Assembly (NCBI GenBank): GCA_000471045.1
Contig: KI301992.1
Coordinates: 1-64,000 of the forward strand
DNA: 64,000 nt
Direction: 5' to 3'
DNA from: an actinobacterium LLX17
GTDB lineage: Bacteria > Actinomycetota > Actinomycetes > Propionibacteriales > Nocardioidaceae
In this document: positions 5,419 through 28,402 of the stretch, one piece after another
Numbering within the stretch: the stretch's first letter is position 1
How the letters are laid out: each line of letters opens with the position of its first letter
Position numbers and translations under genes: made by a program
The notes under the pieces: model-generated
Told to the model about the DNA's origin: nothing
Database searches by the model: none
What the model saw: only the letters and a program-made list of their open reading frames with translations

Positions 5419-7944
5419 TCATGACAACACCGTCCGCCAGGCCGCGAGCAGCGACCGCGTGGTGACAGGGCGCCGCACGGCGATGCGGACCCAGGTGTCG
5501 TCGAGTCCCGGGAAGGTGTCGGCGCGGCGCACAGCGAACCCGGCAGCCCGCAGCCGTGCGTGGGCCCCGGCGCCGGCCTGCGCGAGCACGAACGGACCGG
5601 TGGGGGCAGCGACGACGGGCACGCCCAGCTCGGCCAGTCCGTCGACCAGGACGGCGCGCTGTTGCGTGACCAGTCGGGCGCGCCGCTCGGCCTCGGCGGA
5701 GGCCTCGTCGCCGGCGGTGGCCAGCACGGCGGCGAGAGCGGGACCCGACACCGACCACGGCGGCTGCTGGCGGCGCAGGTCGGCGACGACCTCGCCGTCG
5801 CCGACCACGTAGCCGGCGCGGATGCCCGGGATGGCCCACAGCTTCGTGAGGCTGCGCAGCACCACCAGGCCCGGCATCGGCGTGGACGTGAGGCTGGCGC
5901 GCTCGCCCGGCACGGCGTCCATGAACGCCTCGTCGACCACCACGACGCGGCCCGGTCGCAGCAGCCGGCGCAGGGCCGTCGTGGGGTGCAGGACCGACGT
6001 GGGGTTGGTGGGGTTGCCGATGACCACGAGGTCGGCCGCCTCGGGCACGAGGTCGGGGTCGAGGCGGAAGCCGTCCTCCGCGCGGGTCTGCACGCGGTGC
6101 ACGGCGTGGCCGGCGGTGGTCAGCGCGACCTCGGGCTCGGTGAACTGTGGGTGCACGACCACTGGATGGCTCCAGGCGCGGGCGCGGGCCAGCAGGGTGA
6201 AGGCCTCGGCGGCGCCGGAGGTCACCAGCACCTCGGCGGGGGAACGACCGTGCCGGCGGGCCACGGCCTTCTGCGCGACGCGGGCGTCGGGGTAGGCGGT
6301 CGATCCGGTGAGTCCGTCGTGCAGGGCGCGGGTCAACCACTCGGGGTGCGGCTCGTCGGACACGTTGACCGCGAGGTCGACCAGCCCCTCCGACAGCTCG
6401 GCGTCCCCGTGCCACGTCAGGTCGACCGGCTCGACCGGCTCGGGTCCCCGCTGACTGTCACGTTTCGGCTGCGAAATCGCCGATTCTGCGACCGAAACGT
6501 GCCAGTCAACGGGGGCGGCGGGGGTGGCGGCCGCGGCGGCGTCGGCGAGACGTTGCGCGAGGACGGGGGCGCCGGCCCAGTGGGTGTGCAGGTACGACGC
6601 GTGCAGGGTCGGTCCGGCGAAGCCGATCGCGTCGCCGCGGTCGAGCCACGCCGGCACCTGGCCGTGCACGGGCTGCACCGTCGTGCGGTGGAACTCGTGC
6701 GCCGTCACGCGCTCACCCGCGCGGGTCAGCAGGGTGTCGTGTCCTGCGATGCCCGTGCGGTACGCCAGCGTCAGCCGGGGCGTCATGACGGCGGTGGCGT
6801 CGATCGCACCGATCATCGGCACGTCATCGACGCTCTGGCACAGGTACAGCAGGCCGGCGCACTCGGCGACGGTCGGGATGCCGTCGGCCACCGCGGCGCG
6901 CAGCTGCTCACGCAGCGCGTTGTTGCCGGTGAGGCCCGCGGCGTGCACCTCGGGGAAGCCGCCGCCGAGGTAGATGGCCTGCGTGCCGGCGGGCAGCTCG
7001 GTGTCGGTCAACGGGTCGAACACCTCGACCCGGCAGCCGGCGGCCGCGAGCAGCTCGGTGGTCTCGGCATACGTGAACGTGAAGGCGCGACCGCCCGCGA
7101 CGGCCACGACGGGCTCGCCGGCCACGGGCGTCACGTGGTCGCGGGGGTCCCACGGCGTGGCCGTGAGGTCGGGCGCCGAGCGGGCCAGCTCGAGCACCGT
7201 GTCGAGGTCGATGCGCTCGGCCACCTGCGCGGCGAGCCGGTCGAGCGCGCGGGCGGCCTCCTCACGCTCCTGCGCGGGGACGAGACCGAGGTGGCGCGAC
7301 GGCGCGACGATGCCGTCGTCGCGCGACAGCACGCCCAGCACGGGGATGCCCAGCGGTTCGATCGAGCGACGGACCTCGTCGGCGTGCCGCTGCGAGCCGG
7401 CCTTGTTGAGGATGACGCCGGCCACCCGCACCGCGGGGTCGAACGCGGCGATGCCGTGCACCAGCGCGCCGATCGTGCGGGAGGCGTGCGAGATGTCGAC
7501 GACGAGGATCACCGGGGTGCGGGTGACGGCGGCGACGTGGGCGGTGGAGGCGAACCCCTCGCCACCGATCTGCCCGTCGTACAGCCCCATGACCCCCTCG
7601 ATGACCGCCAGGTCCGCGGCCCCGGTGGGGGTGCCGGGCCGTGGGGGGCGAACAGGTCCAGCTCCGTGCAGCAGCAGGGGCTCGAGGAGGTGCTCGCCGA
7701 CCAGGTGGGGGTCGAGGTTGCGGCCGGGGCGTCCGGTGGCGAGTGCGTGGTAGCCGGGGTCGATGTAGTCGGGGCCGACCTTGTGGCCGCTGACGACGTG
7801 ACCGGACCGCGCGAGGGCAGCCATCAGCCCGGTCGCGACGGTCGTCTTCCCGTGCCCCGAAGCGGGCGCCGCAACGACGAACCGAGGCAGGGCTGACCCG
7901 GCAGGGGTGCCGGGCCCTGGGCGGCGATCAGACTCAGTCACCAT
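5419..7944 (-). CDS. cobB-cobC: Fused cobyrinate a,c-diamide synthase (CobB) and threonine-phosphate decarboxylase-like aminotransferase (CobC)
   Basis: Two enzymes in one 841-residue frame. Residues ~20-470 are CobB: P-loop ASGHGKTT (28-35), KVGPDYIDPGYH, EGVMGLYDG, then a glutaminase domain with GGGFPEVHAAGLTGN, the nucleophile in PTVAECAGLLYLC, and HEFHRT. Residues ~505-841 are a PLP enzyme of the CobC/CobD-decarboxylase type: NPTNPTSV, VVVDEAFMD and the PLP-lysine motif SLTKLWAIPGIRAGY. CobB amidates cobyrinate; the CobC half should supply the aminopropanol linker precursor. The linker (about 477-500) is encoded by a palindromic repeat, and residues 7-16 and 99-108 come from a 35-base repeat. 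The start is ATG 7944 or GTG 7941; both overlap the cobO stop. Confidence 0.93.
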   Translation of the reverse strand: MVTESDRRPGPGTPAGSALPRFVVAAPASGHGKTTVATGLMAALARSGHVVSGHKVGPDYIDPGYHALATGRPGRNLDPHLVGEHLLEPLLLHGAGPVRPPRPGTPTGAADLAVIEGVMGLYDGQIGGEGFASTAHVAAVTRTPVILVVDISHASRTIGALVHGIAAFDPAVRVAGVILNKAGSQRHADEVRRSIEPLGIPVLGVLSRDDGIVAPSRHLGLVPAQEREEAARALDRLAAQVAERIDLDTVLELARSAPDLTATPWDPRDHVTPVAGEPVVAVAGGRAFTFTYAETTELLAAAGCRVEVFDPLTDTELPAGTQAIYLGGGFPEVHAAGLTGNNALREQLRAAVADGIPTVAECAGLLYLCQSVDDVPMIGAIDATAVMTPRLTLAYRTGIAGHDTLLTRAGERVTAHEFHRTTVQPVHGQVPAWLDRGDAIGFAGPTLHASYLHTHWAGAPVLAQRLADAAAAATPAAPVDWHVSVAESAISQPKRDSQRGPEPVEPVDLTWHGDAELSEGLVDLAVNVSDEPHPEWLTRALHDGLTGSTAYPDARVAQKAVARRHGRSPAEVLVTSGAAEAFTLLARARAWSHPVVVHPQFTEPEVALTTAGHAVHRVQTRAEDGFRLDPDLVPEAADLVVIGNPTNPTSVLHPTTALRRLLRPGRVVVVDEAFMDAVPGERASLTSTPMPGLVVLRSLTKLWAIPGIRAGYVVGDGEVVADLRRQQPPWSVSGPALAAVLATAGDEASAEAERRARLVTQQRAVLVDGLAELGVPVVAAPTGPFVLAQAGAGAHARLRAAGFAVRRADTFPGLDDTWVRIAVRRPVTTRSLLAAWRTVLS
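6446..6514. repeat. Long-armed palindrome, type 1 (copy A), in the CobB-CobC linker
   Basis: Two 34-base arms around a single central base; 28 of 34 positions pair. The left arm starts CCCCGCTGACTGTCACGTTT and the right arm is its near complement. The outer arm sequence is shared with copy B at 12819-12881 (CGCTGAGTGTCACGTTT). It is fully translated within the cobB-cobC frame as the interdomain linker. Confidence 0.85.
7621..7655 (+). repeat. 35-base dispersed repeat, copy 1, inside cobB
   Basis: Core CCCGGTGGGGGTGCCGGG followed by CCGTGGGGGGCGAAC. The first 18 bases form a CCCGG...CCGGG stem. It lies antisense to the gene and is read in frame as PPRPGTPTG (within residues 99-108). The other copies are at 7897, 9146, 19888 and 27685. 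Confidence 0.85.
7897..7931 (+). repeat. 35-base dispersed repeat, copy 2, at the CobB N-terminus
   Basis: CCCGGCAGGGGTGCCGGG then CCCTGGGCGGCGATCAG. Antisense to cobB and read in frame as RRPGPGTPAG, residues 7-16, directly before the P-loop strand. Confidence 0.85.
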
Positions 7945-8552
7945 TCGATGCCCCTTTGACCCTTCTGACCGCGGTCGAAGGGGTGCTTGGTGTGATGCAT
8001 CTCGGTGACCAGGTCGGCGATCTCGACGAGCGCGGGGTGGGCGCGGCGGCCGGTGATCATCACGTACTGGCGGCCCGGGCGGTCGCGGAACGTCTCGATC
8101 ACGTCGTCGACGTCGATCCAGCCCCACTCCATGAGGTAGGTGAACTCGTCGAGCACGTAGAGGTCGTGGCGCTCCTCGGCGAGGCGGCGCTTGACCTCCT
8201 GCCAGCCCTCGGCGGCGTCGGCGGCGTGGTCGGTCTCGGAGCCGGCCTTGCGCGACCACGACCAGCCCGAGCCCATCTTGTGCCACTCGACGGGGCCGCC
8301 CTCGCCGGTCTGGGTGTGCAGCTCGCCGAGGCGCTCGAGCACGGTCTGCTCGCCGATGCGCCACTTGGCGGACTTCACGAACTGGAAGACGCCGATGTCC
8401 CAGCCCTGGTTCCAGCCGCGGAGCGCGAGGCCGAAGGCAGAGGTGGACTTGCCCTTGCCGTCACCGGTGTTGACCATCAGCAGCGGCTGATTGCGGCGCT
8501 GGCGGGTGGTGAGGCCGTCGTCGGGGACGGCGATCGGCTGACCCTTGGGCAT
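7938..8552 (-). CDS. cobO: Cob(I)yrinic acid a,c-diamide adenosyltransferase
   Basis: CobO/BtuR-type adenosyltransferase of 204 residues; transfers the adenosyl group from ATP to the reduced corrinoid. The P-loop is NTGDGKGKSTSAFG at about residues 28-41, followed by GVFQFVKSAKWRIGE and the acidic motif LDEFTYLMEWGW, all family hallmarks. Start ATG 8552 shares one base with the stop of the chelatase gene (TGATG), and the stop overlaps the cobB-cobC start, so the three are coupled. Full length, no oddities. Confidence 0.97.
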   Translation of the reverse strand: MPKGQPIAVPDDGLTTRQRRNQPLLMVNTGDGKGKSTSAFGLALRGWNQGWDIGVFQFVKSAKWRIGEQTVLERLGELHTQTGEGGPVEWHKMGSGWSWSRKAGSETDHAADAAEGWQEVKRRLAEERHDLYVLDEFTYLMEWGWIDVDDVIETFRDRPGRQYVMITGRRAHPALVEIADLVTEMHHTKHPFDRGQKGQRGIEW

Positions 8553-10561
8553 CAGGCCACCTCGCGGACGACGGAGGTCAGGGCGTCGGCGGTCACCTCG
8601 GCCAGCGGCACGTAGGAGGCCTCGAGGTGCTCGGCCAGCACCCGCGCGAGGCCGAGCTGGAACGCCCCGGACTCGCAGTCGACCACCACGGTCTCGACAC
8701 CGGCGAGCAGGCCGGCGGCGCGGCGGGACCGAACGACGGGATCGACCCCGTGCGTGGCGCGACCGTCGGTGACGAGCACGACCAGCGGGCGGCGCCGCGG
8801 GTCGCGCACACGCTCGATGCGCAGCGTCTCGACCACCTGCAGCAGCCCTTCGGCGAGCGGGGTGCGCCCGCCGGCGGGGAGGTCGTCGAGGCGCCGGGCG
8901 GCGATGTCGACCGAGCCGGTGGGCGGAAGGGCGAGATCGGCGGAGTCGCCGCGGAAGGTGACCAGGCCGACCTTGTCGCGGCGCTGGTACGCGTCGAGCA
9001 GCAGCGAGAGGATCGCGGTCTTGACCTGACCCATGCGCTTGCGCGCGGCCATCGACCCGGAGGCGTCGACGCAGAACAGCACGAGGTTCGACTCGCGCCC
9101 CTCGGTGATGGCCACGCGGAGGTCAGTGGGGTCGAGGAGCACGCGCCCGGCGGGGGTGCCGGGCCGTGGGCGGCGAACGGATTGGTGGGGGGCGGCGGCC
9201 CAGAGGGTCTGGGGCAGGTCGAGGCGACCGCCGGAGCCCTCGGGTCGGCGGGCGCCGACGCGACGACCGTTGGAGGTCAGGGCTCGGGAGCGACGGCCAG
9301 CCTCGCCTGCGCCGAGTCCCTCGACCGTGAACAGGCGGGCCCGCGACGGCGTGCCGGCCTGGGCGGTGCTGGTACTTCCTGAGCCGGGACCGGAGGGGGA
9401 GGACTCACCCTCGGCGTCGCCCGGCGTGGGGGGAGGGGTGTCGCTGGGGCCATCGTCGGCGTCCGGGCCACCTTCGTCGGAACCACCCTCCGGTCCACCC
9501 TCGGGCGGAGTGTCCGGACCCTCGGGGTCGTCGTCCGGATCGGTGTCGGGCTCGTCGTCGCCCAGCAGGTCCTCGAGCTGCTGCTCGTCGATGCCGGGCT
9601 CGTCGAACGGGTTGCGGCGTCGGCGGTGCGGCAGGGCCAGGCGCGCGGCGACGCGGATGTCCTCGGTGCTGACGTGGGTGCGGCCCTCCCACGCGGCGTG
9701 CGCCACGGCGGCGCGGGCTGTCACGATGTCGGCGCGCATGCCGTCGACGTCGAAGGCCGCGCAGATCTCGGCGATGCGCACGAGGTCGTCGTCGGTCAGC
9801 AGCACCTGGTCGAGCAGCTTCTGCGCGGCGGCGAGGCGATCGGTCAGCGTGGCCTCGTCGTCGGCCCAGCGAGCGGCGAACGTCTCGGGCGCGGCGTCGA
9901 ACGCCAGCCGGCGGCGGGTCACCTCGGCCCGCAGCTGCGGGTCACGCGGCGCGGAGACGTCGACGGTCAGGCCGAAGCGGTCGAGCAGCTGCGGACGCAG
10001 CTCGCCCTCCTCGGGGTTCATGGTGCCGATCAGCACGAACCGTGCGGCGTGCTCGATCGAGACGCCGTCACGCTCCACGGTGCTGCGGCCCATGGCGGCC
10101 GCATCGAGCAGGAGGTCGACCAGGTGGTCGTGCAGCAGGTTGACCTCGTCGACGTAGAGGATGCCGCGGTGCGCGCGCGCCAGCAGGCCGGGCTCGTACT
10201 CCGTGACGCCCTCGCTCAGCGCCTTCTGCAGGTGCAGCGAGCCGAGCACGCGGTCCTCGGTGGCGCCCACCGGCAGCTCCACGAGCCGGACCGGCCGGGA
10301 CTCGACGTCGGGGTGGGGGCCGAACGGTCCATCGGGCGAGCGCGGATCGGCCTCGGCCGGGTCGGACGAGAACCGGTCACCGGCGACGACGTCGATCGGC
10401 GGCAGCACCGACGCGAGGGCGCGCACCATCGTCGACTTCGCGGTGCCCTTCTCGCCGCGCACGAGGACACCACCGATCGCCGGCGAGATCGACGCCAGCA
10501 CGAGGGCCAGCGCCATGTCGTCGGATCCGACGACGGCAGAAAAGGGGTACTGACGTGGCAT
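8552..10561 (-). CDS. Fused ChlI/ChlD-type AAA+ and VWA subunit, probable cobaltochelatase partner of CobN
   Basis: 669 residues combining a magnesium-chelatase-like AAA+ motor and a von Willebrand A domain. Walker A is RGEKGTAKST (35-44), Walker B is ILYVDEVNLL, and the sensor region has NPEEGELRPQLLDRFGL. An acidic, Gly/Pro-rich linker (about 340-420) leads to a VWA domain with the MIDAS motif VDASGSM. In actinobacteria this type of protein is thought to replace CobS and CobT beside CobN for cobalt insertion into hydrogenobyrinate diamide. The 35-base repeat at 9146 encodes RRPRPGTPAG just before the VWA domain. ATG 10561 has GGGAG upstream; an in-frame start at 10651 would extend into the riboswitch. 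Confidence 0.9.
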   Translation of the reverse strand: MPRQYPFSAVVGSDDMALALVLASISPAIGGVLVRGEKGTAKSTMVRALASVLPPIDVVAGDRFSSDPAEADPRSPDGPFGPHPDVESRPVRLVELPVGATEDRVLGSLHLQKALSEGVTEYEPGLLARAHRGILYVDEVNLLHDHLVDLLLDAAAMGRSTVERDGVSIEHAARFVLIGTMNPEEGELRPQLLDRFGLTVDVSAPRDPQLRAEVTRRRLAFDAAPETFAARWADDEATLTDRLAAAQKLLDQVLLTDDDLVRIAEICAAFDVDGMRADIVTARAAVAHAAWEGRTHVSTEDIRVAARLALPHRRRRNPFDEPGIDEQQLEDLLGDDEPDTDPDDDPEGPDTPPEGGPEGGSDEGGPDADDGPSDTPPPTPGDAEGESSPSGPGSGSTSTAQAGTPSRARLFTVEGLGAGEAGRRSRALTSNGRRVGARRPEGSGGRLDLPQTLWAAAPHQSVRRPRPGTPAGRVLLDPTDLRVAITEGRESNLVLFCVDASGSMAARKRMGQVKTAILSLLLDAYQRRDKVGLVTFRGDSADLALPPTGSVDIAARRLDDLPAGGRTPLAEGLLQVVETLRIERVRDPRRRPLVVLVTDGRATHGVDPVVRSRRAAGLLAGVETVVVDCESGAFQLGLARVLAEHLEASYVPLAEVTADALTSVVREVA
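9146..9180 (+). repeat. 35-base dispersed repeat, copy 3, inside the chelatase gene
   Basis: CCCGGCGGGGGTGCCGGG then CCGTGGGCGGCGAACGG. Antisense to the gene and translated as RRPRPGTPAG between the acidic linker and the VWA domain. Confidence 0.87.
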
Positions 10562-10599
10562 GTGGGGCTCCCGCTCTCCGTGCCGTGGCTGTGTCCACA

Positions 10600-10745
10600 A
10601 GGGGAGGCCCGAGGCCGGTCTCCGGACTTCCCGGATCCAGGTCCGGGTCACCGTAGCGGGCCCTGTGCCGGATTCTCACCGGCTTCCCGATTCTCCCCTC
10701 CTGCGGACGCTCACGCGCTCGCCACCGGGGCACCTCGGGCCGTGT
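10600..10745 (-). promoter_or_regulatory. Cobalamin riboswitch upstream of the chelatase-cobO-cobB/C operon
   Basis: Minus strand: GGGAAGCCGGTGAGAATCCG, then GCACAGGGCCCGCTACGGTG, and the B12 box AGTCCGGAGACCGGCCTC at about 10609-10626. The order and spacing fit a cobalamin aptamer. It ends about 40 bases before the ATG at 10561. Confidence 0.94.
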
Positions 10746-14390: not shown

Positions 14391-15058
14391 TCGCGCTCCT
14401 GGGCGAGGGCGTTGAGCGCCGACGCGGCCATCGCGGAACCACCGCGGCGCCCTCGCACGGTCACGAAGGGCACGTCGATGTCGTGATCGGCGGCGAACGA
14501 CGCTAGTGCGTGCTTCGACTCGGCCGCGCCGATGAACCCGACCGGCACGCCGACGATCGCGGCGGGACGCGGCGCCCCGTCGATCAGCATCTCCAGCAGG
14601 TGGAACAGCGCCGTGGGCGCGTTGCCGATGGCCACCACCGCGCCCTCCATGCGGTCGGCCCACAAGGAGACGGCCGCGGCCGAGCGCGTGGTGCCCCACT
14701 CTCGGGCGAGATCGGGCACGCGGGAGTCGCGCAGCAGGCAGACCACGTCGTTGCCCGCAGGGAGCCGGGCGCGGGTGACGCCCGAGGCGACCATGTGCGC
14801 GTCGGTCAGGATCGGCGCCCCCGACTCGAGCGCCGCACGCGCCGACGACGCCAGCTGCGGGTGGATCACGAGGTCGCGCACCAGGTCGGTCTGCCCGGTG
14901 CCGTGGATCATCCGCACCGCGACCTTCTCGGCGTCGGCGGGCACGCCGGACAGGTCGGCCTCGGCGCGGATCGTCGCGAACGAGTCGACATAGATGGCGG
15001 GGCCGCTGTCGACGTAGTCGTACCGGGACGGGGGACGGCGGGGGTGCGTGAGGGTCAT
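14387..15058 (-). CDS. cobH: Precorrin-8X methylmutase
   Basis: CobH moves the C11 methyl to C12, forming hydrogenobyrinate. The 223-residue product has SFATIRAEADLSG near residue 26, RMIHGTGQTDLV (with the catalytic histidine), PILTDAHMVASGV and the C-terminal signature GVPVGFIGAAESK. ATG 15058 overlaps the cobG stop (ATGA) and its own stop overlaps cobI-cobJ. Complete and typical. Confidence 0.97.
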   Translation of the reverse strand: MTLTHPRRPPSRYDYVDSGPAIYVDSFATIRAEADLSGVPADAEKVAVRMIHGTGQTDLVRDLVIHPQLASSARAALESGAPILTDAHMVASGVTRARLPAGNDVVCLLRDSRVPDLAREWGTTRSAAAVSLWADRMEGAVVAIGNAPTALFHLLEMLIDGAPRPAAIVGVPVGFIGAAESKHALASFAADHDIDVPFVTVRGRRGGSAMAASALNALAQERE

Positions 15059-15995
15059 GCGGGCTCCAGGTCGGGCAGCAGCAGGCTGCGCCAGGGGGTC
15101 ACGACGATCTCGGGACCGGCATGCGCGAGCACCTGCCGGGCGAGGTCGGGGGTGAGCAGGCCGTCGGGGACCGCGACGTGCTCGGTCTCCAGGCCGTCGA
15201 TCTGCGGGATGCGGCCGTGGGGCAGGGGCAGCGCCGTGACGTGCGTGCGCAGGTCGCGGGCGTGGTGCGGCTGCGCGAAGTCCGAGCCGCGGTCGGGCAG
15301 CTCGTCGACGTGCCAGACGGCGTTCTCCGCCGCCCGTGGCCCGGTGGTTCCTGAGGTGCGAGCCTGTGAGCCTCGAAGGGCACCCCCGCCAGGGGCGGCG
15401 GTGCGAACCTGGAGGAAGCGCTGGGCGAGGGCGATCAGCGCCTCCGGCAGGTCGTCAAGACCGATGACCTCGCCCCAGAAGTCGGACCCGATGCGCAGCT
15501 GCGCCGAGTCGGCGTCGACCGCCATCGCCCCCAGGTCGAGCGAGCGGTCGGCCAGGTCACCGCGACCGTCGTCGAGCACCACGAGGAAGCGGGCCGAAAG
15601 TCCGGCCAGGTCGGGGTCGGCGCGCAGCAGCTCGTCGAACCGGTCGGCCGCCGGTCGCAGGTCGGCACGGCCGCCCATCCGACCCGACAGCGGCGACACC
15701 ATGATGTTGCGCACCAGCTCGTGCGTCGGCGACGGCAGCAGCCCGGCCTCGGTGATGGCGTCGACGAACGCGGGGGAGACGCAGCCGTCGTCGTGCGCGA
15801 GCGCGCGCAGCTGCACGTTGGCGCGGCTGGTCAGGTGCAGGTTGCCGTCGGCGTGCTCGGCCGAGGTGCGCACCAGACGGCTGAGGGACTCGGTGGGCAG
15901 GCGTCCACCGACGAGTCGAAGCCGCACGAGGGCGCCGTCGTCGGCGATCCACGGTCGCAGCACCCCGGGGCAGCGGTCGGCACGGTCACGCGTCG

Positions 15996-15999
<4 letters not shown>
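15055..15999 (-). CDS. cobG: CobG-like precorrin-3B synthase, C-terminally short
   Basis: Resembles aerobic CobG, the monooxygenase that converts precorrin-3A to precorrin-3B. N-terminal half: ADRCPGVLRPW, LHLTSRANVQLRAL, LLPSPTHELVRNIMVSPLSG and FLVVLDDGRGD, all family-like. After ETEHVAVPDGLL it reaches VVTPWRSLLLPDL and then stops at 314 residues. Related proteins, as I recall them, continue some 50-80 residues with a cysteine cluster (ACTG..GC type) for the iron-sulfur centre; this is absent here. Residues ~197-220 are encoded by a repeat-like insert (15343-15411). ATG 15999 overlaps the ATPase stop. It may be inactive or use a different cofactor arrangement. Confidence 0.85.
15343..15411. 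repeat. In-frame repeat-like insert in cobG
   Basis: About 69 bases with imperfect complementary halves around GCGAGCCTGTGAGCCTCG. The insert adds roughly 23 residues (TAAPGGGALRGSQARTSG and following) between RFLQVR and AVWHVDEL, which are adjacent in other CobG proteins as I recall them. Its GGTGCGAGC...CTCGAAGGGCACC pattern resembles intergenic repeats of this lineage; only one copy is evident in the window. Confidence 0.5.
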
Positions 16000-16846
<847 letters not shown>

Positions 16847-16850
<4 letters not shown>

Positions 16851-17896
16851 GCCGACCTCCGCCGTTGCCGCAGCATGATCAGCACGAACGCCGGTACGCC
16901 GACGAGCGCCGTCGCGACGCCCACCGGCAGCTCCTGCGGAGCGATCACCACCCGCGACCCCATCTCGACCCACACCAGGAAGATGGCACCCAGCACCGTG
17001 GCGGTCGGCACCAGGAGTCGGTGCCGCACCCCGACGATCGCCCGCGCCGCGTGCGGCAGCACCAGTCCGACGAAGCCGATCGCCCCCGACGTCGAGACGA
17101 TCACGGCCGTCATCAGCGCCGTGACCACCAGCAGCAGCAGGCGCACCTTCACCACCGAGACCCCCAGCGTCGCGGCGGCGTCCTGACCGAACGTGAACGC
17201 GTCGAGCGTCCCGGCCGCGGCCCAGCAGACGGCGGTGCCCAGCAGCACGACCGACCCACACACCACCACGTCGTTCCAGGAGGCGGTGCTGAGGGACCCC
17301 AGCAGCCAGAACAGCACCCCGCGGGTCTGCTCGGCGTCGGCCGCCGTGAACACGATGAACGAGGTGAGCGCCGAGAACAGCTGCGTGGCCGCGACGCCCG
17401 CGAGGATGACGCGATCGGTCGTGCCGCCGGTGACGAAGCCGAGCAGCAGCACCAGCCCGAACGCCACGACCGCGCCGACGAACGCACCGCCGGCGAGCCC
17501 GATCGCGCCCGCACCGACGCCGGTGAGCACCACCAGCACCGCGCCCGTCGAGGCACCCGACGAGACGCCCAGCACGAACGGATCGGCCAGTGGATTGCGC
17601 AGCAGCGACTGCAGCACGACCCCGCACAGCGCGAGCCCGGCGCCACAGACTGCCGCGAGGACCGCCCGCGGCAGCCGCAGCTCCCAGATGATGCCTTCGC
17701 GCAGGTCCGACAGCCCCGAGTCCGGTCCGCCGAGCCGCTCCAGCATCACGGCGAGTGCGTCCCGGGCCCCCAGGTCGGACGGTCCGACGGTCGTGGCGAC
17801 GGCGACCGACAGCACCAGCACCGCCAGCGCCACGGGGGCGAGGGCGGTGAGGACGGGGCGACCCACGGGGGTGGGGCGGGTGCCGACGTGCGCCAC
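16847..17896 (-). CDS. FecCD-family iron/cobalamin ABC permease
   Basis: BtuC-like permease of 349 residues with about ten membrane helices. Family motifs are visible: ELRLPRAVLAAVCGAGLALC, LQSLLRNPLADPFVLG and GAIGFVGLVLPHAARAIVG. The start is GTG 17896, one base after the SBP stop. The last codons overlap the ATPase start. With the adjacent SBP and ATPase it forms a complete importer under a cobalamin riboswitch. Confidence 0.95.
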
Positions 17897-19860: not shown

Positions 19861-19887
19861 TCGCTCGTGCACGGGGTCGGGTCGGTG

Positions 19888-19922
19888 CTGTTTGCCGCCC
19901 ACGGCCCGGCGCCCCCGCCGGG
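19888..19922 (-). repeat. 35-base dispersed repeat, copy 5, abutting the cobN riboswitch
   Basis: Minus strand CCCGGCGGGGGCGCCGGG then CCGTGGGCGGCAAACAG. The only intergenic copy; it ends where the cobN leader begins, so it may lie over the promoter or within the 5' end of the transcript. Confidence 0.85.
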
Positions 19923-20040
19923 ATACCCTGTGCGCACCGGCCGCGTGGGCCCGGGAACCCGGTGCGACTCCGGGGCGGTTCCGCCACTGTGACTTCGACT
20001 CCTCCAGGTGACGAAGCAGCCAGACACCGACCACGCCGGC
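19923..20040 (+). promoter_or_regulatory. Cobalamin riboswitch upstream of cobN
   Basis: Plus strand: CGGGAACCCGGTGCGACTCC, GGTTCCGCCACTGTGAC and the B12 box AAGCAGCCAGACACCGACC. Downstream, GGAGG and CTCC flank ACC just before the ATG at 20081, so the ribosome binding site may be sequestered, suggesting translational control. Confidence 0.95.
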
Positions 20041-20080
20041 TTCCGCACCGATGGGGCGAGAACCCCGAGGAGGACCCTCC

Positions 20081-23000
20081 ATGACCCGCATTGCCCTGCT
20101 CTCCACGTCCGACACCGACCTGCTGTCGGCCCGGGCCAGCGGCGCCGACTACCTGTGGGCCAACCCGGGCCGGCAGGTCGAGGGCCACCAGTCGATGGCC
20201 GAGGCGATCGAGGCGTCCGACCTCGTCATCTGCCGCCTGCTCGGCTCGCCGCAGGACCTCTGCGGCGGCTTCGAGCGCATCCGCGCCACCGGCAAGCCGA
20301 TGATCGTGCTGGGCGGCGAGCTCACCCCCAACGCCGAGCTGATGGAGATGTCGACCGTGCCGGTCGGTGTCGCCGCCGAGGCGCACCGCTACCTGGTCGA
20401 GGGCGGACCCGAGAACCTCACGCAGCTGCACGCCTTCTGCTCCGACACCGTGCTGCTGACCGGCGAGGGCTTCGAGCCCCCGGCGCAGGTGCCCGCCTGG
20501 GGCTGGCTCGACCGCCCCGCGGCGAGCCCGAGCGGTGACAGCGATGGGGACGGGCAGGGCGTCCCACGCGTCGGCGTGCTGTTCTACCGCGCGCACCACA
20601 CCAGCGGCAACGAGGACTTCGCGCACGCGCTGGCCGACGCCATCGACGCCACGGGCGAGGCCGTCGGCCTGCCGATCTTCAGCAGCTCGCTGCGCGCCGC
20701 TCCCGACGACCTCTACGACGCTCTCGGCACCCTCGACGCGCTGATCGTCACGGTGCTCGCGGCGGGTGGCTCCACCCCCGCATCGGCGTCGGCCGGTGGT
20801 GACGACGAGGCCTGGGACGTCGCGCGCATGGCGGCCCTCGACATCCCCGTCCTGCAGGGCCTGTGCCTCACGTCGAGTCGCGAGGAGTGGCTGGCCAACG
20901 ACGACGGCGTCACGCCGCTCGACTCGGCCAATCAGATCGCGATCCCCGAGTTCGACGGCCGCATCATCACCGCGCCGTTCTCGTTCAAGGAGGTCGACGA
21001 GGACGGCCTGCCGCGCTACGTCGCCGACCCCGAGCGCTGCGACCGCGTGGCTCGCATCGCCGTGCACCACGCGCGCCTGCGCCACGTCGCGGCCGCCGAC
21101 CGCCGCGTCGCGCTGATGCTCTCGGCCTACCCCACCAAGCACAGCCGCGTGGGCAACGCCGTCGGCCTCGACACCCCCGTCTCGGCCGTGCGCATGCTGC
21201 GCCTCATGGCCGAGGCCGGCTACGACCTCGGCGACGACAACGAGGTCACCCGCATCCTCGCGATGGACGACGACACCGAGGCCGGCAACAAGCTCATCCA
21301 CACGCTGATCGACGCCGGCGGCCAGGACGAGGAGTGGCTGACGTCCGCGCAGCTCACCGAGTCGCACGTGCGCATCACGCCCGAGCAGTACGCCGAGTGG
21401 ACCGCCGACCTGCCGCAGGACCTCAAGGACGAGATCGTCGAGGCGTGGGGCGCCGCGCCCGGCACGCTGTTCGTCAACGACCAGGGCCACATCGTGCTGG
21501 CCACGCTGCAGGCCGGCAACGTCGTCATCCTCATCCAGCCGCCGCGCGGCTTCGGCGAGAACCCGGTCGCGATCTACCACGACCCCGACATGGCGCCCTC
21601 GCACCACTACCTCGCTGCCTACCGCTGGCTGCGCGGCTCGGTCGCGTCCGGTGGCTTCGGCGCGCACGCCGTGGTGCACCTGGGCAAGCACGGCTCGATG
21701 GAGTGGCTGCCGGGCAAGAACGCCGCGCTCTCGGCGTCCTGCGCCACCGACGCCGCGATCGCCGACCTGCCGCTGATCTACCCGTTCCTCGTGAACGACC
21801 CGGGTGAGGGCGCGCAGGCCAAGCGTCGTGCGCACGCCGTGGTGGTCGACCACCTCATCCCCCCGATGGCCCGCGCCGAGACGTACGGCGACATCGCACG
21901 GCTCGAGCAGCTGCTCGACGAGTACGGCAACATCGCCGCGATGGACCCGGGCAAGCTGCCCGCCATCCGGGGCGAGATCTGGACGCTCATGCGCTCGGCC
22001 GAGATGCACCGCGACCTCGGTCTGGACGAGCAGCCGGACGACGAGGAGTTCGACGACTTCATCATGCACGTCGACGGCTGGCTGTGTGAGATCAAGGACG
22101 TGCAGATCCGCGACGGCCTGCACGTGCTGGGCCAGGCGCCGGAAGGCTCGGTGCGAGTCGACCTCGTGCTCGCCATCCTGCGCGCCGCCCAGGTCTGGGG
22201 CGGCGAGACCGGCGCCGTGCCCGGTCTGCGTGCCGCACTGGGCCTGAAGGACGGCGAGGCCACCGCCGCCGTCGACTCCATCGAGACGCAGGCCCGGTCG
22301 CTGGTGCAGGCGATGGACGACGCCGGCTGGGACCCCGAGGCCTCCACCGGACTGCACGACGACCCGGAGGTGCAGCGCGTGCTGCGCTTCGCCGCCACCG
22401 AGGTCGTGCCGCGACTCGACGGCACCCGCAACGAGCTGACCGCCGTGCTGCACGCGCTCGACGGCGGCTTCATCCCGGCCGGCCCGTCCGGCTCCCCGCT
22501 GCGTGGCCTGGTCAACGTGCTGCCGACCGGCCGAAACTTCTACACCGTCGACCCGCGGGCCGTTCCGTCGCGCCTGGCCTGGGACACCGGCCAGGCCATG
22601 GCCGACTCGCTGCTCGAGCGCTACCTCGCCGACACCGGCGAGTACCCCGCCTCGGTCGGTCTGTCCGTGTGGGGAACGTCGGCGATGCGCACCAGTGGTG
22701 ACGACATCGCCGAGGTGCTGGCGTTGCTCGGTGTCCGGCCGGTGTGGGACGAGGCCTCGCGCCGCGTCAGCGACCTGGTGGTCGTCCCGCTGGAGGAGCT
22801 GGGCCGTCCGCGGATCGACGTCACGGTGCGCATCTCGGGCTTCTTCCGCGACGCGTTCCCGCACGTGGTCTCGATGCTCGACGACGCGGTGCGCCTCGTG
22901 GCCGACCTCGACGAGCCGGACGACCAGAACTTCGTCCGCCGCCACACGCTGGCCGACCTGGAGGAGCACGGCGACGCCCGCCGCGCCACCACCCGCATCT

Positions 23001-23716
23001 TCGGCTCGGCCCCGGGGTCGTACGGCGCGGGCATCCTGCAGGTCATCGAGTCGGGCACGTGGCGCGACGACGCCGACCTCGCCGAGGTCTACACGGCGTG
23101 GGGCGGCTTCGCCTACGGTCGCGACCTCGCCGGCGTGCCGGCCGCCGACGACATGCGCACCTCGTACAAGCGCATCAAGGTCGCGGCCAAGAACATCGAC
23201 ACCCGCGAGCACGACATCGCTGACTCCGACGACTACTTCCAGTACCACGGCGGCATGGTCGCCACGATCCGCGCGCTCACCGGCTCGGACCCGAAGGCGT
23301 ACGTCGGCGACTCCACCTCGCCCGACGCGGTGCGCACCCGCACGCTGCAGGAGGAGACCAACCGCGTCTTCCGCTCGCGCGTCGTCAACCCGCGCTGGAT
23401 CGGCGCGATGCGCCGCCACGGCTACAAGGGCGCGTTCGAGCTGGCGGCCACGGTCGACTACCTGTTCGGCTTCGACGCCACCGCCGGTGTGGTGCACGAC
23501 TGGATGTACGAGTCGCTGGCCAAGGAGTACGTGCTCGACGCCGAGACGCAGGAGTTCCTGCGCGAGGCCAACCCGTGGGCGCTGCGCGGCATCGTCGAGC
23601 GGCTGGGCGAGGCGGCCGAGCGCGGCCTCTGGGCGGAGCCGGATCCGGACGTCGTCGCGGCGATGCAGGCGGTCTACCTCGAGATCGAGGGTGACCTGGA
23701 GGATCGCGGGCAGTGA
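20081..23716 (+). CDS. cobN: Cobaltochelatase subunit CobN
   Basis: Large subunit of the aerobic ATP-dependent cobaltochelatase, which inserts cobalt into hydrogenobyrinate a,c-diamide. 1211 residues, normal length. Motifs: LYRAHHTSGNEDF-like segment near residue 165 (VGVLFYRAHHTSGN), HLGKHGSMEWLPGK around residue 535, PLIYPFLVNDPGEG and GRNFYTVDPRAVPS. ATG 20081 follows GAGGAGGA; an in-frame ATG at 20051 lies inside the riboswitch region and is less likely. Its motor partner is the fused ChlI/D-type protein at 8552-10561. The stop overlaps the cobF GTG. Confidence 0.97.
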   Translation: MTRIALLSTSDTDLLSARASGADYLWANPGRQVEGHQSMAEAIEASDLVICRLLGSPQDLCGGFERIRATGKPMIVLGGELTPNAELMEMSTVPVGVAAEAHRYLVEGGPENLTQLHAFCSDTVLLTGEGFEPPAQVPAWGWLDRPAASPSGDSDGDGQGVPRVGVLFYRAHHTSGNEDFAHALADAIDATGEAVGLPIFSSSLRAAPDDLYDALGTLDALIVTVLAAGGSTPASASAGGDDEAWDVARMAALDIPVLQGLCLTSSREEWLANDDGVTPLDSANQIAIPEFDGRIITAPFSFKEVDEDGLPRYVADPERCDRVARIAVHHARLRHVAAADRRVALMLSAYPTKHSRVGNAVGLDTPVSAVRMLRLMAEAGYDLGDDNEVTRILAMDDDTEAGNKLIHTLIDAGGQDEEWLTSAQLTESHVRITPEQYAEWTADLPQDLKDEIVEAWGAAPGTLFVNDQGHIVLATLQAGNVVILIQPPRGFGENPVAIYHDPDMAPSHHYLAAYRWLRGSVASGGFGAHAVVHLGKHGSMEWLPGKNAALSASCATDAAIADLPLIYPFLVNDPGEGAQAKRRAHAVVVDHLIPPMARAETYGDIARLEQLLDEYGNIAAMDPGKLPAIRGEIWTLMRSAEMHRDLGLDEQPDDEEFDDFIMHVDGWLCEIKDVQIRDGLHVLGQAPEGSVRVDLVLAILRAAQVWGGETGAVPGLRAALGLKDGEATAAVDSIETQARSLVQAMDDAGWDPEASTGLHDDPEVQRVLRFAATEVVPRLDGTRNELTAVLHALDGGFIPAGPSGSPLRGLVNVLPTGRNFYTVDPRAVPSRLAWDTGQAMADSLLERYLADTGEYPASVGLSVWGTSAMRTSGDDIAEVLALLGVRPVWDEASRRVSDLVVVPLEELGRPRIDVTVRISGFFRDAFPHVVSMLDDAVRLVADLDEPDDQNFVRRHTLADLEEHGDARRATTRIFGSAPGSYGAGILQVIESGTWRDDADLAEVYTAWGGFAYGRDLAGVPAADDMRTSYKRIKVAAKNIDTREHDIADSDDYFQYHGGMVATIRALTGSDPKAYVGDSTSPDAVRTRTLQEETNRVFRSRVVNPRWIGAMRRHGYKGAFELAATVDYLFGFDATAGVVHDWMYESLAKEYVLDAETQEFLREANPWALRGIVERLGEAAERGLWAEPDPDVVAAMQAVYLEIEGDLEDRGQ

Positions 23717-25171: not shown

Positions 25172-25172
25172 A

Positions 25173-25196: not shown

Positions 25197-26111
25197 ATGA
25201 CCGATTCCGCAGTCCGCAGCAGCCAGATCATTGAGGGCGTCGACGGTACCCCGATCCACGCCTGGATCTACCCGGCCGTCGGCCGGACGGCCGCCGACGG
25301 GCCGGTCCCGGCGATCGTCATGGCCCATGGCATCGGCGGCATCAAGGCCGCCGGTCTCGCGCCGTTCGCCGAAGCCTTCTCCGCCGCGGGCTACACCTGC
25401 GTCGTCTTCGACTACCGGCACTGGGGCCAGTCCGGGGGCGAGCCCCGCGAGATGCTGTCGATGGCGGCGCAGCAGGCCGACTACCGGGCCGTTCTGCAGC
25501 ACGCGCGCACGATGGACAGCGTCGATCCCGACCGCATCGTCCTGTGGGGCACGTCGTTCGCCGGCATGCACGTGGTCGAGCTCGCGGCCACCGAGACCTA
25601 CCTCGTCGGTGCGATCGCGCAGTGCCCGCTGGTCGACGGGCTCGCCGGCATCCTCAACGTCCCACCGGCGCGAGGGGTGCGCCTGATGCGGCAGGCCCTG
25701 CTCGATCGGCTCGGCGCAGGGCGCGGCCACGAAGCCCGCTACCTGCCGCTCATCGTCGACGAGGGCGAGCTCGGCGTCATCGCCACGAAGGACGCACTGC
25801 TGGGGCAGGACCGCCTGGCGCCCACCGACGGCACCGACTGGCCCAACCGCATCACCGCGCGCAGCCTGCTCGACGTCACGTTCAGCCGCCCGGCGCGCCG
25901 CGCGTCCCAGGTCCGGTGCCCGCTGCTGATGGTGGTGGCCGAGGAAGACACGATGGCGCCCACCGGCCCTGCGGTGAAGGTGGCGGCAAAGGCGCCGCGC
26001 GGCGAGCTCTACCGCAGTCAGGGCGGGCACTACGACCTCTACGCCGGGGGGCCTGCCCACGACGACGTGCTGGCCGTCGAGCTCGCCTTCCTCGCCCGGG
26101 TCACCAGCTAG
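25197..26111 (+). CDS. Alpha/beta hydrolase
   Basis: 304-residue serine hydrolase. The oxyanion region is MAHGIGG (about 42-48), the nucleophile elbow is GTSFAG (about 119-124), an acidic residue lies in AEEDTMAP and the catalytic histidine in QGGHYDLY. No signal peptide, so cytosolic. The fold group includes esterases and the acetyl xylan esterase/dienelactone hydrolase type; the substrate cannot be told. Probably controlled by the divergent TetR. The 3' end overlaps the convergent DUF2461 gene by 4 bases. Confidence 0.9.
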   Translation: MTDSAVRSSQIIEGVDGTPIHAWIYPAVGRTAADGPVPAIVMAHGIGGIKAAGLAPFAEAFSAAGYTCVVFDYRHWGQSGGEPREMLSMAAQQADYRAVLQHARTMDSVDPDRIVLWGTSFAGMHVVELAATETYLVGAIAQCPLVDGLAGILNVPPARGVRLMRQALLDRLGAGRGHEARYLPLIVDEGELGVIATKDALLGQDRLAPTDGTDWPNRITARSLLDVTFSRPARRASQVRCPLLMVVAEEDTMAPTGPAVKVAAKAPRGELYRSQGGHYDLYAGGPAHDDVLAVELAFLARVTS

Positions 26112-26746
26112 TCCTTGGCATGGGCGATGACCCAGTCGGTCAGGACGGTCGCCTCGCGCCAGTCGGCGCGGATCACGTCGACGAGGTCGGGCGTGCCGAT
26201 CACGTCGGGCCCGAAGCCGCGCTCGCGGCGGACGCTGAGCGACTTGTGCCGCAGCAGCTCGATGCGCGGGTGCTCGGGGTCGTAGCCGCGCGGGTGGGTC
26301 TTGAGCCGCTCGCCGGTGCGCTTCCAGCCGACCGACTCGAGCTGCTCGAGGATCTGCTCCAGCTCGGGACCGTGCAGGTCGTTGACGATCGCGTCGCGGA
26401 AGGTCGCGAGCCGGGCCGGTGACGCGCCGTAGAACCCGACGGCGACCTCGATGCCGGGCGGGCCGATCTGCACGTAGTAGCCCGTCGACGGCCCGCGTGG
26501 CACGAACAGTCCCTGGTGGGTCTTGTACGGCGTCTTGTCCTTGCTGAACCGCACGTCGCGGTACGGCCGGAAGATCTTCGTCTCGCCGAACTCCTCGGTC
26601 AGCTCGGCCGCGAGCGCCTTCATCGGGGCGGCGACGAACTCGTCGTAGCGGTGCTTGTTGGCGGCCCAGAACGTCTTGGTGTTGTCGGCCTCGAGGTCGT
26701 CGTAGAAGTCGAGCGCCTCGTCCCGGAACCCCGCGAACTCACCCAT
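26108..26746 (-). CDS. DUF2461 (TIGR02453) family protein
   Basis: 212-residue conserved protein of unknown function. Characteristic sequences are FYDDLEADNTKTFWAANKHR, RFSKDKTPYKTHQG and GGP-like YYVQIGPPGIEVAVGFY. The family is widespread but has no established activity. Upstream on its strand TAGGGT lies exactly 6 bases before the ATG with no Shine-Dalgarno, pointing to a leaderless mRNA. No clear link to the des operon, from which it diverges. Confidence 0.92.
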   Translation of the reverse strand: MGEFAGFRDEALDFYDDLEADNTKTFWAANKHRYDEFVAAPMKALAAELTEEFGETKIFRPYRDVRFSKDKTPYKTHQGLFVPRGPSTGYYVQIGPPGIEVAVGFYGASPARLATFRDAIVNDLHGPELEQILEQLESVGWKRTGERLKTHPRGYDPEHPRIELLRHKSLSVRRERGFGPDVIGTPDLVDVIRADWREATVLTDWVIAHAKD

Positions 26747-26752
26747 CCCTCG

Positions 26753-26758
26753 ACCCTA
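26753..26758 (-). promoter_or_regulatory. -10 box of a leaderless DUF2461 transcript
   Basis: TAGGGT with a 6-base spacer to the ATG at 26746. Confidence 0.6.
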
Positions 26759-26837
26759 CGTCGGGCCGGCGGCGACGTCAGTCCGGCCCGGGTGTGACGC
26801 AGAACCCCTTGCGGCCGACTGCACAGGAACCGCTAGG

Positions 26838-26856
26838 TTAGGTGAGCCTTGCCAAT
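26838..26856. promoter_or_regulatory. Iron box (DmdR/IdeR type) upstream of the siderophore operon
   Basis: TTAGGTGAGCCTTGCC and flanks match the actinobacterial iron-box consensus TTAGGTTAGGCTAACC at 13 of 19 positions, best in the left half. It lies 35 bases before desA. Repression by an iron-loaded DtxR-family regulator is the usual mechanism for des operons. Confidence 0.75.
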
Positions 26857-26890
26857 CTTGGGCAGCCCCTCGACGGAAGGACTGGCGCCG

Positions 26891-28402
26891 GTGCGTCACA
26901 CCGATCACCTCTTCACGGCCGACACGATCGGCACCTACGCCGATGCGATGCAGCAAGGTGTCGACCACCTCGTGCGGCACGTCGAGCACCTGCAGCAACC
27001 GTTCTCCGGGGTCACCCCCACCGCATCGGCGACGAAGGTCGGCCCGGTCGACCTCGACCGGCCGCTCGGCGACACCGCCGAGGCGCTCGCCGAGCTGAGC
27101 GAGCTCTACCTCGACGACGCCGTGTGGTTCCACGACCCGCGCTATGCCGCCCACCTGAACTGCCCGGTCGTCGTGCCGGCACTGCTGGCCGAGGTGTTCG
27201 TCTCGGCCGTGAACAGCTCGCTCGACACCTGGGACCAGAGCGCCGGCGGAACGCTCATCGAGCGCAAGCTGATCGACTGGACCGTCGCGCGCGTCGGGTT
27301 CGGACCCGAGGGCGACGGCATCTTCACGAGTGGAGGAACGCAGTCGAACCTGCAGGCCCTGCTGCTGGCCCGCGGCCAGGCCTTTCTGGAAGAGACCGAC
27401 CCCACCGCGCCGATGGCCGCGACCCTGGCGCGGATGCGGATCTTCGCGACCGCCGAGAGCCACTTCAGCGTGCAGAAGGCCGCGAACCTCCTCGGACTCG
27501 GGGCGGAGGCCGTGGTGCTGGTGCCCACCGACCCCGGCCACCGCATGGACCCGTTCGCCCTCGCCGAGGCGCTCGACCAGACCCGCCGTGCGGGTCTGCT
27601 GCCGATGGCGGTCGTCGCCACGGCCGGCACCACCGACCTCGGCGCGATCGACCCGATCGACCGGATCGCGGACGTCTGCAGCGCCCCGGCGGGGGTGCCG
27701 GGCCGTGGGCGGCAAGAAGGCGCCGTCTGGCTCCACGTCGACGCCGCGTACGGCGGGGGCCTGCTGGCCTCGACCCGGCGCCGCCACCTGCTGACCGGCA
27801 TCGAGCGCGCCGACTCGGTCACGATCGACTACCACAAGACGTGGTTCCAACCGGTCAGCGCGAGCGCCATTGTCGTGCGTGACCGCGAGGCGCTGCGGCA
27901 CGTCACGTGGCACGCCGACTACCTCAACCCCCGCTCCGCGGTGCTGCCGAACCAGGTCGACAAGAGCATGCAGACGACGCGCCGCTTCGACGCGCTGAAG
28001 CTCTGGATGACGCTACGCACGATGGGTGCCGACGCGGTCGGTGAGCTCTTCGACCGCTCCATCGACCTCGCGCAGGAGCTGTTCTGGACCCTGCACGACG
28101 ACGCCGGGATCGGTGCCGACTTCGAGGTCGCGATGCACCCGACCCTCAGCACGCTGGTGTTCCGCTTCCGGCCGTCCGCCGTGGGCGAGGAGGCGGCCTC
28201 GCGGCTCAACGCGCGCATCCGCCAGGAGGTCTTCGCCGGTGGTCGCGCGGTGGTGGCAGGCACGACGTTCCACCACGGCACCTGGCTCAAGCTGACGCTG
28301 CTCAACCCCACCGCGACGATCGAGGACCTGCGGGCCGTGCTGTCGCTCGTGCACGGCATCGGCCACGACCTGCTCGACAGCGCGACGGAGGAGGTCGCCT
28401 GA
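26891..28402 (+). CDS. desA: PLP-dependent lysine decarboxylase of desferrioxamine biosynthesis (DesA type)
   Basis: Group II pyridoxal decarboxylase (503 residues), expected to make cadaverine from lysine as the first siderophore step. Motifs: GGTQSNLQALLLAR, VVATAGTTDLGAIDPI, LHVDAAYGGG and the PLP lysine in VTIDYHKTWFQP. GTG 26891 was chosen because the family N-terminus (RHTDHLFTADTI) begins there; a TTG at 26849 would lie over the iron box. The 35-base repeat at 27685 inserts about 12 residues (APAGVPGRGRQEG) just before LHVDAAYGG. It is followed without a gap by desB. A diaminobutyrate or ornithine substrate cannot be excluded. Confidence 0.92.
   Translation: MRHTDHLFTADTIGTYADAMQQGVDHLVRHVEHLQQPFSGVTPTASATKVGPVDLDRPLGDTAEALAELSELYLDDAVWFHDPRYAAHLNCPVVVPALLAEVFVSAVNSSLDTWDQSAGGTLIERKLIDWTVARVGFGPEGDGIFTSGGTQSNLQALLLARGQAFLEETDPTAPMAATLARMRIFATAESHFSVQKAANLLGLGAEAVVLVPTDPGHRMDPFALAEALDQTRRAGLLPMAVVATAGTTDLGAIDPIDRIADVCSAPAGVPGRGRQEGAVWLHVDAAYGGGLLASTRRRHLLTGIERADSVTIDYHKTWFQPVSASAIVVRDREALRHVTWHADYLNPRSAVLPNQVDKSMQTTRRFDALKLWMTLRTMGADAVGELFDRSIDLAQELFWTLHDDAGIGADFEVAMHPTLSTLVFRFRPSAVGEEAASRLNARIRQEVFAGGRAVVAGTTFHHGTWLKLTLLNPTATIEDLRAVLSLVHGIGHDLLDSATEEVA
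27685..27719 (+). repeat. 35-base dispersed repeat, copy 4, inside desA
   Basis: CCCGGCGGGGGTGCCGGG then CCGTGGGCGGCAAGAAG. Here it is in the sense direction and is read as PAGVPGRGRQE, next to the conserved HVDAAYGG core. Confidence 0.87.

What the first reader, a model, noticed from the sequence alone, without database searches (positions are those of the whole stretch)
7621..27719. A 35-base repeat in at least five copies, four of them translated in frame
Copies at 7621, 7897, 9146, 27685 (plus) and 19888 (minus) share CCCGG(C/T)GGGGGTGCCGGG-type hairpins followed by CCGTGGGCGGC. Copies 1-3 lie antisense to their genes and are read in the same phase, giving (R)RPxPGTPAG in CobB (twice) and in the chelatase. 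Copy 4 is sense and read as PAGVPGRGR in DesA. Copy 5 abuts the cobN riboswitch. All frames stay open in both orientations, which suits an element spreading through genes.
Basis: seen in the sequence. Interest (0 to 1): 0.8.

Follow-up and report, generated by a model that had tools for sequence, protein, structure and literature searches.

The report
Tiny spreading repeat inside bacterial proteins
A roughly 40-base DNA repeat has spread through the genomes of some Aeromicrobium bacteria and often sits inside the genes of ordinary enzymes, adding about 12 amino acids without breaking the reading frame.

Summary
The repeat is real: all five copies are present, and a sixth, split copy lies in a CobG-like gene. 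In the 3.0 Mb genome 49 places match at up to 3 mismatches, reversed control 0; it occurs in 14 of 49 genomes of the genus (Aeromicrobium, inferred) and 0 of 49 outside it. Delimited copies are mostly 39-42 nt.

It is inserted DNA. Orthologues without it: CobB 20 of 23 readable, AroB 26 of 30, chelatase 25 of 30 with neither repeat. One loop can hold it in different orientations, frames and copy numbers. Tandem spacing in genes is a multiple of 3 in 24 of 24 pairs, elsewhere in 15 of 36. The conserved structure is not the drawn hairpin but a 4-bp inverted pairing, fully complementary in 235 of 254 copies, with double changes at two of four pairs. A second REP-like family is nested inside it.

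It works like Rickettsia palindromic elements and intragenic REPs but lacks their size, tags and Y1 transposase (0 of 49 genomes). What moves it is unknown. New variant of a known kind.

The parts
7622..7661 (+). Element A copy 1, antisense inside cobB; adds 12 residues (peptide ..RPPRPGTPTGA..)
   Evidence: 33-residue empty form in 17 of 23 readable orthologous loci
7898..7937 (+). Element A copy 2 (A5/CT subfamily), antisense at the 5' end of cobB; N-terminal extension TESDRRPGPGTPAGSA before LPRFVVAAPAS
9147..9185 (+). Element A copy 3, antisense inside the magnesium-chelatase-like gene (RRPRPGTPAGR); 3' end uncertain
   Evidence: 25 of 30 orthologues without either repeat
15329..15392 (-). 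Element A copy 6, core split in two inside the CobG-like gene; halves 15379-15392 and 15329-15342
   Evidence: unsplit copy at the same site in L038
15343..15378 (+). Element B (second REP-like family), 36 nt, nested in copy 6 between GTGCC and GGGCC
19883..19921 (-). Element A copy 5, intergenic, upstream of the cobN cobalamin riboswitch
27686..27724 (+). Element A copy 4, sense, PAGVPGRGR frame, inside the desA-like decarboxylase gene; 3' end uncertain
   Evidence: 11-residue gap in the 5o5c and 2qma alignments
5419..7941 (-). Host gene cobB (CbiA + GATase_3, fused to an aminotransferase domain); start at 7941 inferred from translation
8552..10651 (-). Host gene: magnesium-chelatase-like AAA/VWA protein
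15055..15999 (-). Host gene: nitrite/sulfite-reductase ferredoxin half-domain protein (the name CobG is recalled)
26849..28402 (+). Host gene: pyridoxal-dependent decarboxylase, DesA/DfoJ-like
19952..20029 (+). Cobalamin riboswitch (partial match) upstream of cobN 20051-23716

Best explanation
A genus-restricted, non-autonomous interspersed element of about 39-42 nt ('A') inserts at many places, in either orientation. Selection removes insertions that break genes. Because the unit has no stop codon in any of six frames and the net gain measured in CobB is 36 or 39 nt, it can survive inside genes as a loop of 12-13 residues, mostly in the GGGAGPxAA register. After insertion, copies multiply locally as head-to-tail arrays (slippage or unequal exchange). 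Shown: dispersal, empty sites, frame keeping, different array sizes in relatives, pairing of core positions 11-14 with 24-27. Inferred: selfish or neutral character; recognition of that pairing, as a folded single strand or as a dimer site, by an unidentified enzyme.
For: Copies and control: 49 places in the own genome; 14 of 98 searched genomes, all in the genus; reversed control 0. Empty sites: CobB 20 of 23 readable loci lack A (17 with the 33-residue form, 3 with 38-40 residues and no A; 7 of 30 loci not readable by the motif), AroB 26 of 30, chelatase 25 of 30 (plus 1 with repeat B). Same loop hit differently: CobB antisense in G000 and G002, sense in G011; chelatase antisense in G000 and G004, two tandem sense copies in another frame in G002, sense GGGAGP frame in G016. 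Registers: 53 of 73 in-gene sites use one of six. Array spacing: 24 of 24 multiples of 3 in genes, 15 of 36 outside, Fisher p 8e-7, pairs not fully independent. Array size: ArgJ 5 copies in G005, 1 in G028 and G039 (ArgJ by the empty orthologue). Pairing: 235 of 254 complementary; covariation score 0.232, shuffles 0.045, 0 of 500. Nested second repeat of 36 nt.
Against: No mobilising enzyme found: PF01797 0 of 49; PF00078 in 5 of 49, only one of them element-bearing. No target-site duplication in 59 delimited copies. Folding energies are not clearly better than shuffles in 11 folds of 6 DNA and 5 RNA sequences, and two of five measures (number of pairs with a double change, further pair types) are reached by 129 and 98 of 500 shuffles. 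The distant CobQ homologue 5n9m has a loop of about the same length at the second CobQ insert, so it gives no support there. 12 of 22 G005 stretches had a filled counterpart among the G028 stretches fetched, so present activity is unproven. Gene calls were a crude codon-score script. Translation was not measured.
Confidence: 0.78

Rival explanations
1. It is a REP sequence moved by an IS200/IS605-like tyrosine transposase (RAYT), as GTAG-REPs are thought to be.
For: REP size class; palindromic core followed by a variable linker and a short end motif; in-ORF and intergenic copies; intragenic REPs are described in PMC3733652 (section 15).
Against: PF01797 has no match in any of 49 genus genomes while 5 of 14 control genomes ring; no GTAG or CGTC consensus at the borders of the core (199 copies) or in the delimited copies.
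Confidence: 0.1
2. It is a functional DNA site: the inverted NCCG...CGGN is bound by a dimeric DNA-binding protein (nucleoid, replication or repair factor), and copies are kept for that.
For: A symmetric dimer site would also give perfect inverted covariation; folding is weak.
Against: No match in 35 of 49 genomes of the genus and 1 to 56 places in the others by one pattern; it sits inside enzymes and in tandem arrays.
Confidence: 0.12
3. The peptide itself is selected: a useful flexible GGGAGPxAA linker added to proteins, convergent or copied for its protein function.
For: 53 of 73 in-gene sites use the same register.
Against: Other registers occur, sometimes in the same loop of the same protein; 82 of 155 sites are intergenic or at gene edges; the nucleotide pairing covaries in coding and intergenic copies alike.
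Confidence: 0.05
4. It spreads by reverse transcription of an RNA form or as filler DNA captured at break repair.
For: No target duplication, and both orientations at the same site, fit capture.
Against: Reverse transcriptase family PF00078 matches only 1 of the 14 element-bearing genomes. End joining was not tested.
Confidence: 0.08
5. The matches are conserved protein sequence or compositional chance in 72 percent GC DNA.
For: High GC makes GC-rich repeats common.
Against: Shuffles give 0, reversed control 0 in 98 genomes, most orthologues lack the residues.
Confidence: 0.01

Closest known systems
Rickettsia palindromic elements (RPE; Wolbachia counterparts)
   Same: Interspersed repeats translated in frame inside conserved proteins as well as intergenic (passages of PMC2229807, and PMC10969869).
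   Different: RPEs are given as 105-146 bp with long stem-loops; this is about 39-42 nt with a 4-bp pairing, in a 72 percent GC genome, in head-to-tail arrays, with all six frames open.
GTAG- and CGTC-tagged REPs found inside ORFs
   Same: 20-40 bp class, some inside ORFs including repair and tRNA-synthetase genes; the CGTC type has no known transposase (passages and section 15 of PMC3733652).
   Different: No GTAG or CGTC tag; arrays are head-to-tail, whereas the passages call HT dimers absent, under-represented or negligible; the word Actinobacteria does not occur in that paper's held text.
MITEs
   Same: Small, non-autonomous, dispersed, can fuse in frame (passages).
   Different: No terminal inverted repeats seen and no target duplication signal in 59 copies.
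MIRU-type mycobacterial tandem repeats (recalled, not looked up)
   Same: Actinobacterial short tandem units with variable copy number.
   Different: This one is also dispersed inside the bodies of conserved enzymes and carries a covarying pairing.

Membership tests
Rickettsia palindromic elements | in-frame insertion in conserved proteins | tested here: met
Rickettsia palindromic elements | 105-146 bp length with long stem-loop | tested here: not met
   58 of 59 delimited copies are 39-42 nt, one is 37; folding energies like shuffles
Rickettsia palindromic elements | sequence homology to an RPE family | not tested
   no RPE sequence was fetched
GTAG/CGTC REP | GTAG or CGTC at one end | tested here: not met
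   no such consensus in the column table from -5 to +47 of 199 copies; the 59 copies were picked by their end motif and so do not test the 3' end independently
GTAG REP | RAYT tyrosine transposase in the genome | tested here: not met
   PF01797 0 of 49 genomes, control rings in 5 of 14
REP | conserved palindromic stem | tested here: met
   4-bp pairing with double changes at two pairs; short for a REP
MITE | target-site duplication | tested here: not met
   no duplication above shuffled pairs for k 3-5 at the offsets tried, 59 copies
MITE | terminal inverted repeats | tested here: inconclusive
   none seen by eye in the 59 listed copies; no statistical test
MITE | ends matching an autonomous insertion sequence | not tested
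   no genome-wide search; among 119 of 387 neighbouring proteins no transposase family is in the 25 commonest of 184
Phage or plasmid borne repeat | presence on phages, viral contigs or plasmids | tested here: not met
   0 matches in viral contigs, plasmids and phages

The most novel reading that the evidence does not exclude
Aeromicrobium carries an undescribed mobilisation system, neither a Y1 tyrosine transposase nor a reverse transcriptase, that inserts stop-free elements with 36- or 39-nt net gain into genes. At least two families (A and B) use it, B entering A at one exact point, so whole-codon insertion is a recurrent source of new protein loops in these bacteria.
Probability: 0.3. Interest if true: 0.85.

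Novelty: new variant of a known kind. Interest (0 to 1): 0.66.

Why it matters
Protein-coding selfish repeats are best known from Rickettsia. Here is a compact, abundant case in actinobacteria, in core enzymes (CobB, CobQ, AroB, ArgD, ArgJ, LeuRS, chelatase), with natural series of empty site, one copy and up to five copies of the same enzyme. That makes two open questions testable: how proteins absorb inserted peptides, and what moves REP-like repeats when no Y1 transposase is present. It also warns annotators that a 12-residue difference between orthologues may be inserted DNA.

Tried and rejected
Tyrosine transposase route: PF01797, 0 of 49. Reverse transcriptase: PF00078 in 5 of 49, only G011 element-bearing. 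Vehicle: viral contigs, plasmids, phages, 0 each. Target-site duplication: none. A recurring transposase next to copies: none among the 25 commonest of 184 families in 119 scanned of 387 neighbouring proteins; the other 159 families were not shown. The obvious CCGGC/GCCGG hairpin: no double change. A pseudoknot with positions 4-8/17-21: weak, 50 of 80 cores unpaired at one pair. A first genome search with a mis-spaced pattern found 1 unrelated place and 5 in its reversed control. Xer dif-like 28-bp layout: considered, halves not alike, dropped by eye.

Wider spread: a covariance model over 293 genomes of the order matched in 13. Seven genus members have 24-32 matches each. Six genomes have one weak match each (E 1.8e-4 to 7.9e-4): G014 of the genus and five of other genera; that is more than the nominal 0.3 expected, though E-values are rough. 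I looked at three: the G014 one has TCCG/CGGA pairing and a CACAG end and may be a decayed copy; the other two lack the end. The other three were not looked at.

One Luteimonas stretch (L132) was dropped as chance; one 'Proteobacteria' MAG contig end (L100) was kept. One search used 199 and one search used 202 of the 208 contexts (dropped: six-mismatch rows, L132 and, rows with too little flank). One search's 254 copies were taken at up to 2 mismatches in fixed positions, chance hits included; on the later, larger set of loci the reversed control gave 3 against 305. Alignment A1 used 80 of the 91 distinct cores; 11 were dropped by eye as chance or out of register, several of them unpaired, which favours; one search has no such choice. 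Orthologue loci were the best 30 of 47 (AroB), 40 (CobB) and 43 (chelatase) genomes with hits. Searches use only loci L001-L158 and require at least 3 of 4 stem pairs; orthologous sites in different species count apart.

Full report
OBSERVATION. The five copies are at the stated places, with no match in 100 shuffles of the window. In the 3,000,939-base genome a 31-mer pattern at up to 3 mismatches finds 41 places and a 30-mer 49; the reversed pattern finds 0. Copy 2 lies just after the inferred cobB start (GTG at 7941) and gives MVTESDRRPGPGTPAGSALPRFVV where G032 has MVSASLPRFVV.

A SIXTH COPY AND A NESTED REPEAT. At 15329-15392 (-), in a gene with a nitrite/sulfite-reductase half domain (the name CobG is recalled), a copy is split between GTGCC and GGGCC by 36 nt of a different palindromic repeat, 'B'. 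The reading frame stays open: PGGGA[LRGSQARTSGTT]GPRAAEN. Locus L038 (genome G030) has an unsplit copy at the same place, TGGGAGPRAADGT. The same A::B junction occurs at 404 kb of the own genome and once in G032, and in no other of the 49 genus genomes by that exact pattern. Between the three loci the DNA similarity is the repeats themselves (66 to 115 nt, and a 27-nt tandem copy) plus one 44-nt hit elsewhere at E 2e-6. B matches in 9 of 49 genus genomes (G032 103, G030 45, G004 23, G014 21, own 3, G023 3, G002 2, G015 2, G033 1; reversed control 0) and forms a 36-nt-period array of four in G014.

DISTRIBUTION. 14 of 98 genomes searched carry A at up to 3 mismatches: 14 of 49 in the genus, with 1 to 56 places each, and 0 of 49 outside it. 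So the genus is inferred to be Aeromicrobium. A covariance model over 293 genomes of the order gave 24-32 matches in 7 genus members and one weak match in each of 6 others, one of them G014 of the genus, possibly a decayed copy. On a tree of AroB, chelatase and CobB the carriers fall in four lineages plus single-copy G043; G045 was not placed and some deep nodes are weak. None on viral contigs, plasmids or phages.

IT IS INSERTED DNA. CobB: of 30 loci 23 were readable by the motif; 3 carry A (+12, +12, +13 residues), 17 have the 33-residue empty form, 3 have 38-40 residues without A. AroB: 4 of 30 carry A, 26 do not. Chelatase: 4 of 30 carry A, 1 carries B, 25 neither. DesA: an 11-residue gap over the insert against 5o5c and 2qma. 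ArgD: 34 residues holding three copies where chain 7nn1 has 3; A. terrae has one copy at the same site (locus L107). LeuRS: a gap over the insert, longer than the insert itself. CobQ: the only homologues found are distant; at the second insert 5n9m has a loop of about the same length, so no support there. CobB: no solved homologue by sequence; a model (AlphaFold2, 26 sequences, mean pLDDT 70) places the insert in a coil between a helix ending at 55 and a strand starting at 72. AroB, ArgJ, ArgD-type and CobQ-type identities are by Pfam (ArgJ through the empty orthologue in L107).

HOT LOOPS. The same chelatase loop holds A antisense (G000, G004), two tandem sense copies in the AGVPGHGR frame (G002), one sense copy in the GGGAGP frame (G016) and B (G032). 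The same CobB loop holds A antisense (G000, G002) and sense (G011). At a gene junction G005 has A sense and its close relative G028 has A antisense. I read these as separate insertions into tolerant places; replacement or inversion is not excluded.

TRANSLATION AND SELECTION. In 155 distinct sites of loci L001-L158, 73 lie inside predicted genes, 26 at gene edges and 56 between genes. Of the 73, 53 read GGGAGPxAA, 10 PAGVPG, 6 RRPGTPAG, 3 AAxGPAP and 1 another; binomial p against one sixth is 7e-26, with sites not fully independent. Spacing of tandem copies is a multiple of 3 in 24 of 24 in-gene pairs and 15 of 36 others. Purifying selection on reading frame gives this, and it is the best evidence that the arrays are translated.

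TURNOVER. Of 22 stretches fetched from G005, 12 had a filled counterpart among the G028 stretches fetched; for the rest no counterpart was at hand, so nothing can be said. Array size differs: ArgJ 5 copies in G005, 1 in G028 and G039; another gene 4 against 2; AroB 2 against 1, each plus a partial copy. In this pair array size changes more readily than sites, as far as compared.

STRUCTURE. With the 4-mers at core positions 11-14 and 24-27 left free, 235 of 254 copies are fully complementary: GCCG/CGGC 191, TCCG/CGGA 30, CCCG/CGGG 6, GCGG/CCGC 6, CCGG/CCGG 2. On 80 distinct cores the covariation score is 0.232 against 0.045 in shuffles (0 of 500) and at most 0.057 when slid; two other measures (pairs with a double change, further pair types) are reached by 129 and 98 of 500 shuffles. 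Folding energies do not clearly beat shuffles, so the pairing may be read in a protein-bound single strand or be a symmetric dimer site; these data cannot tell.

ENDS. Among 199 copies not followed by another, one of nine short motifs such as CACAG, AACAG, CACCG or CAGAG follows the core in 52 percent, against 10 percent of random windows; 59 single copies delimited by such a motif are 37-42 nt, 58 of them 39-42. No target duplication was detected.

MECHANISM. Most likely a non-autonomous element placed by an unidentified enzyme, filtered by selection, then locally duplicated. Insertion, filtering and duplication rest on comparison; the enzyme is inference. A Y1 transposase and a reverse transcriptase are not supported.

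KNOWN KINDS. It behaves like Rickettsia palindromic elements (passages of PMC2229807, PMC10969869 and PMC2635572) and like REPs inside ORFs (PMC3733652, passages and section 15), but it fails their size, tag and transposase features. Searches for an Aeromicrobium repeat or this peptide in print found nothing relevant in the listings (open-licence library only).

Noticed in passing
window 15343-15378; L334, L335-L352, L354: A second REP-like family B (TGAGGTGCGAG...GAGCCTCGA) with variable loop, 103 places in G032, nested inside element A and inside the G032 chelatase gene.
   Followed up: partly
window 34651-38085: ORF with degenerate repeats at about 260-nt spacing (35720-37333); a repetitive protein, not identified.
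   Followed up: no
window 16786-16864: Three copies of a repeat with 24-nt spacing (TCCGTCGGGGTGCTCATGCCGACC, family D18).
   Followed up: no
window 5419-7941: cobB is fused in one ORF to an aminotransferase class I/II domain (CbiA, GATase_3, Aminotran_1_2).
   Followed up: no
L278 (G005), L305, L083: ArgJ carries five near-identical 36-nt units in G005, about 60 extra residues, against one in G028 and G039.
   Followed up: partly
L100: A contig binned as Proteobacteria ends in element A with the same kind of linker as an Aeromicrobium MAG; perhaps misbinned or a transfer.
   Followed up: no
L323 (G014): A weak covariance-model match with TCCG/CGGA pairing and a CACAG end, possibly a decayed copy of A in a genome without close copies.
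   Followed up: partly
L275, L304, L262, L102: One gene junction (downstream gene looks like a cysteine synthase, recalled) holds element A sense in G005, antisense in G028 and G000, and three sense copies in the HQM.2 MAG.
   Followed up: partly
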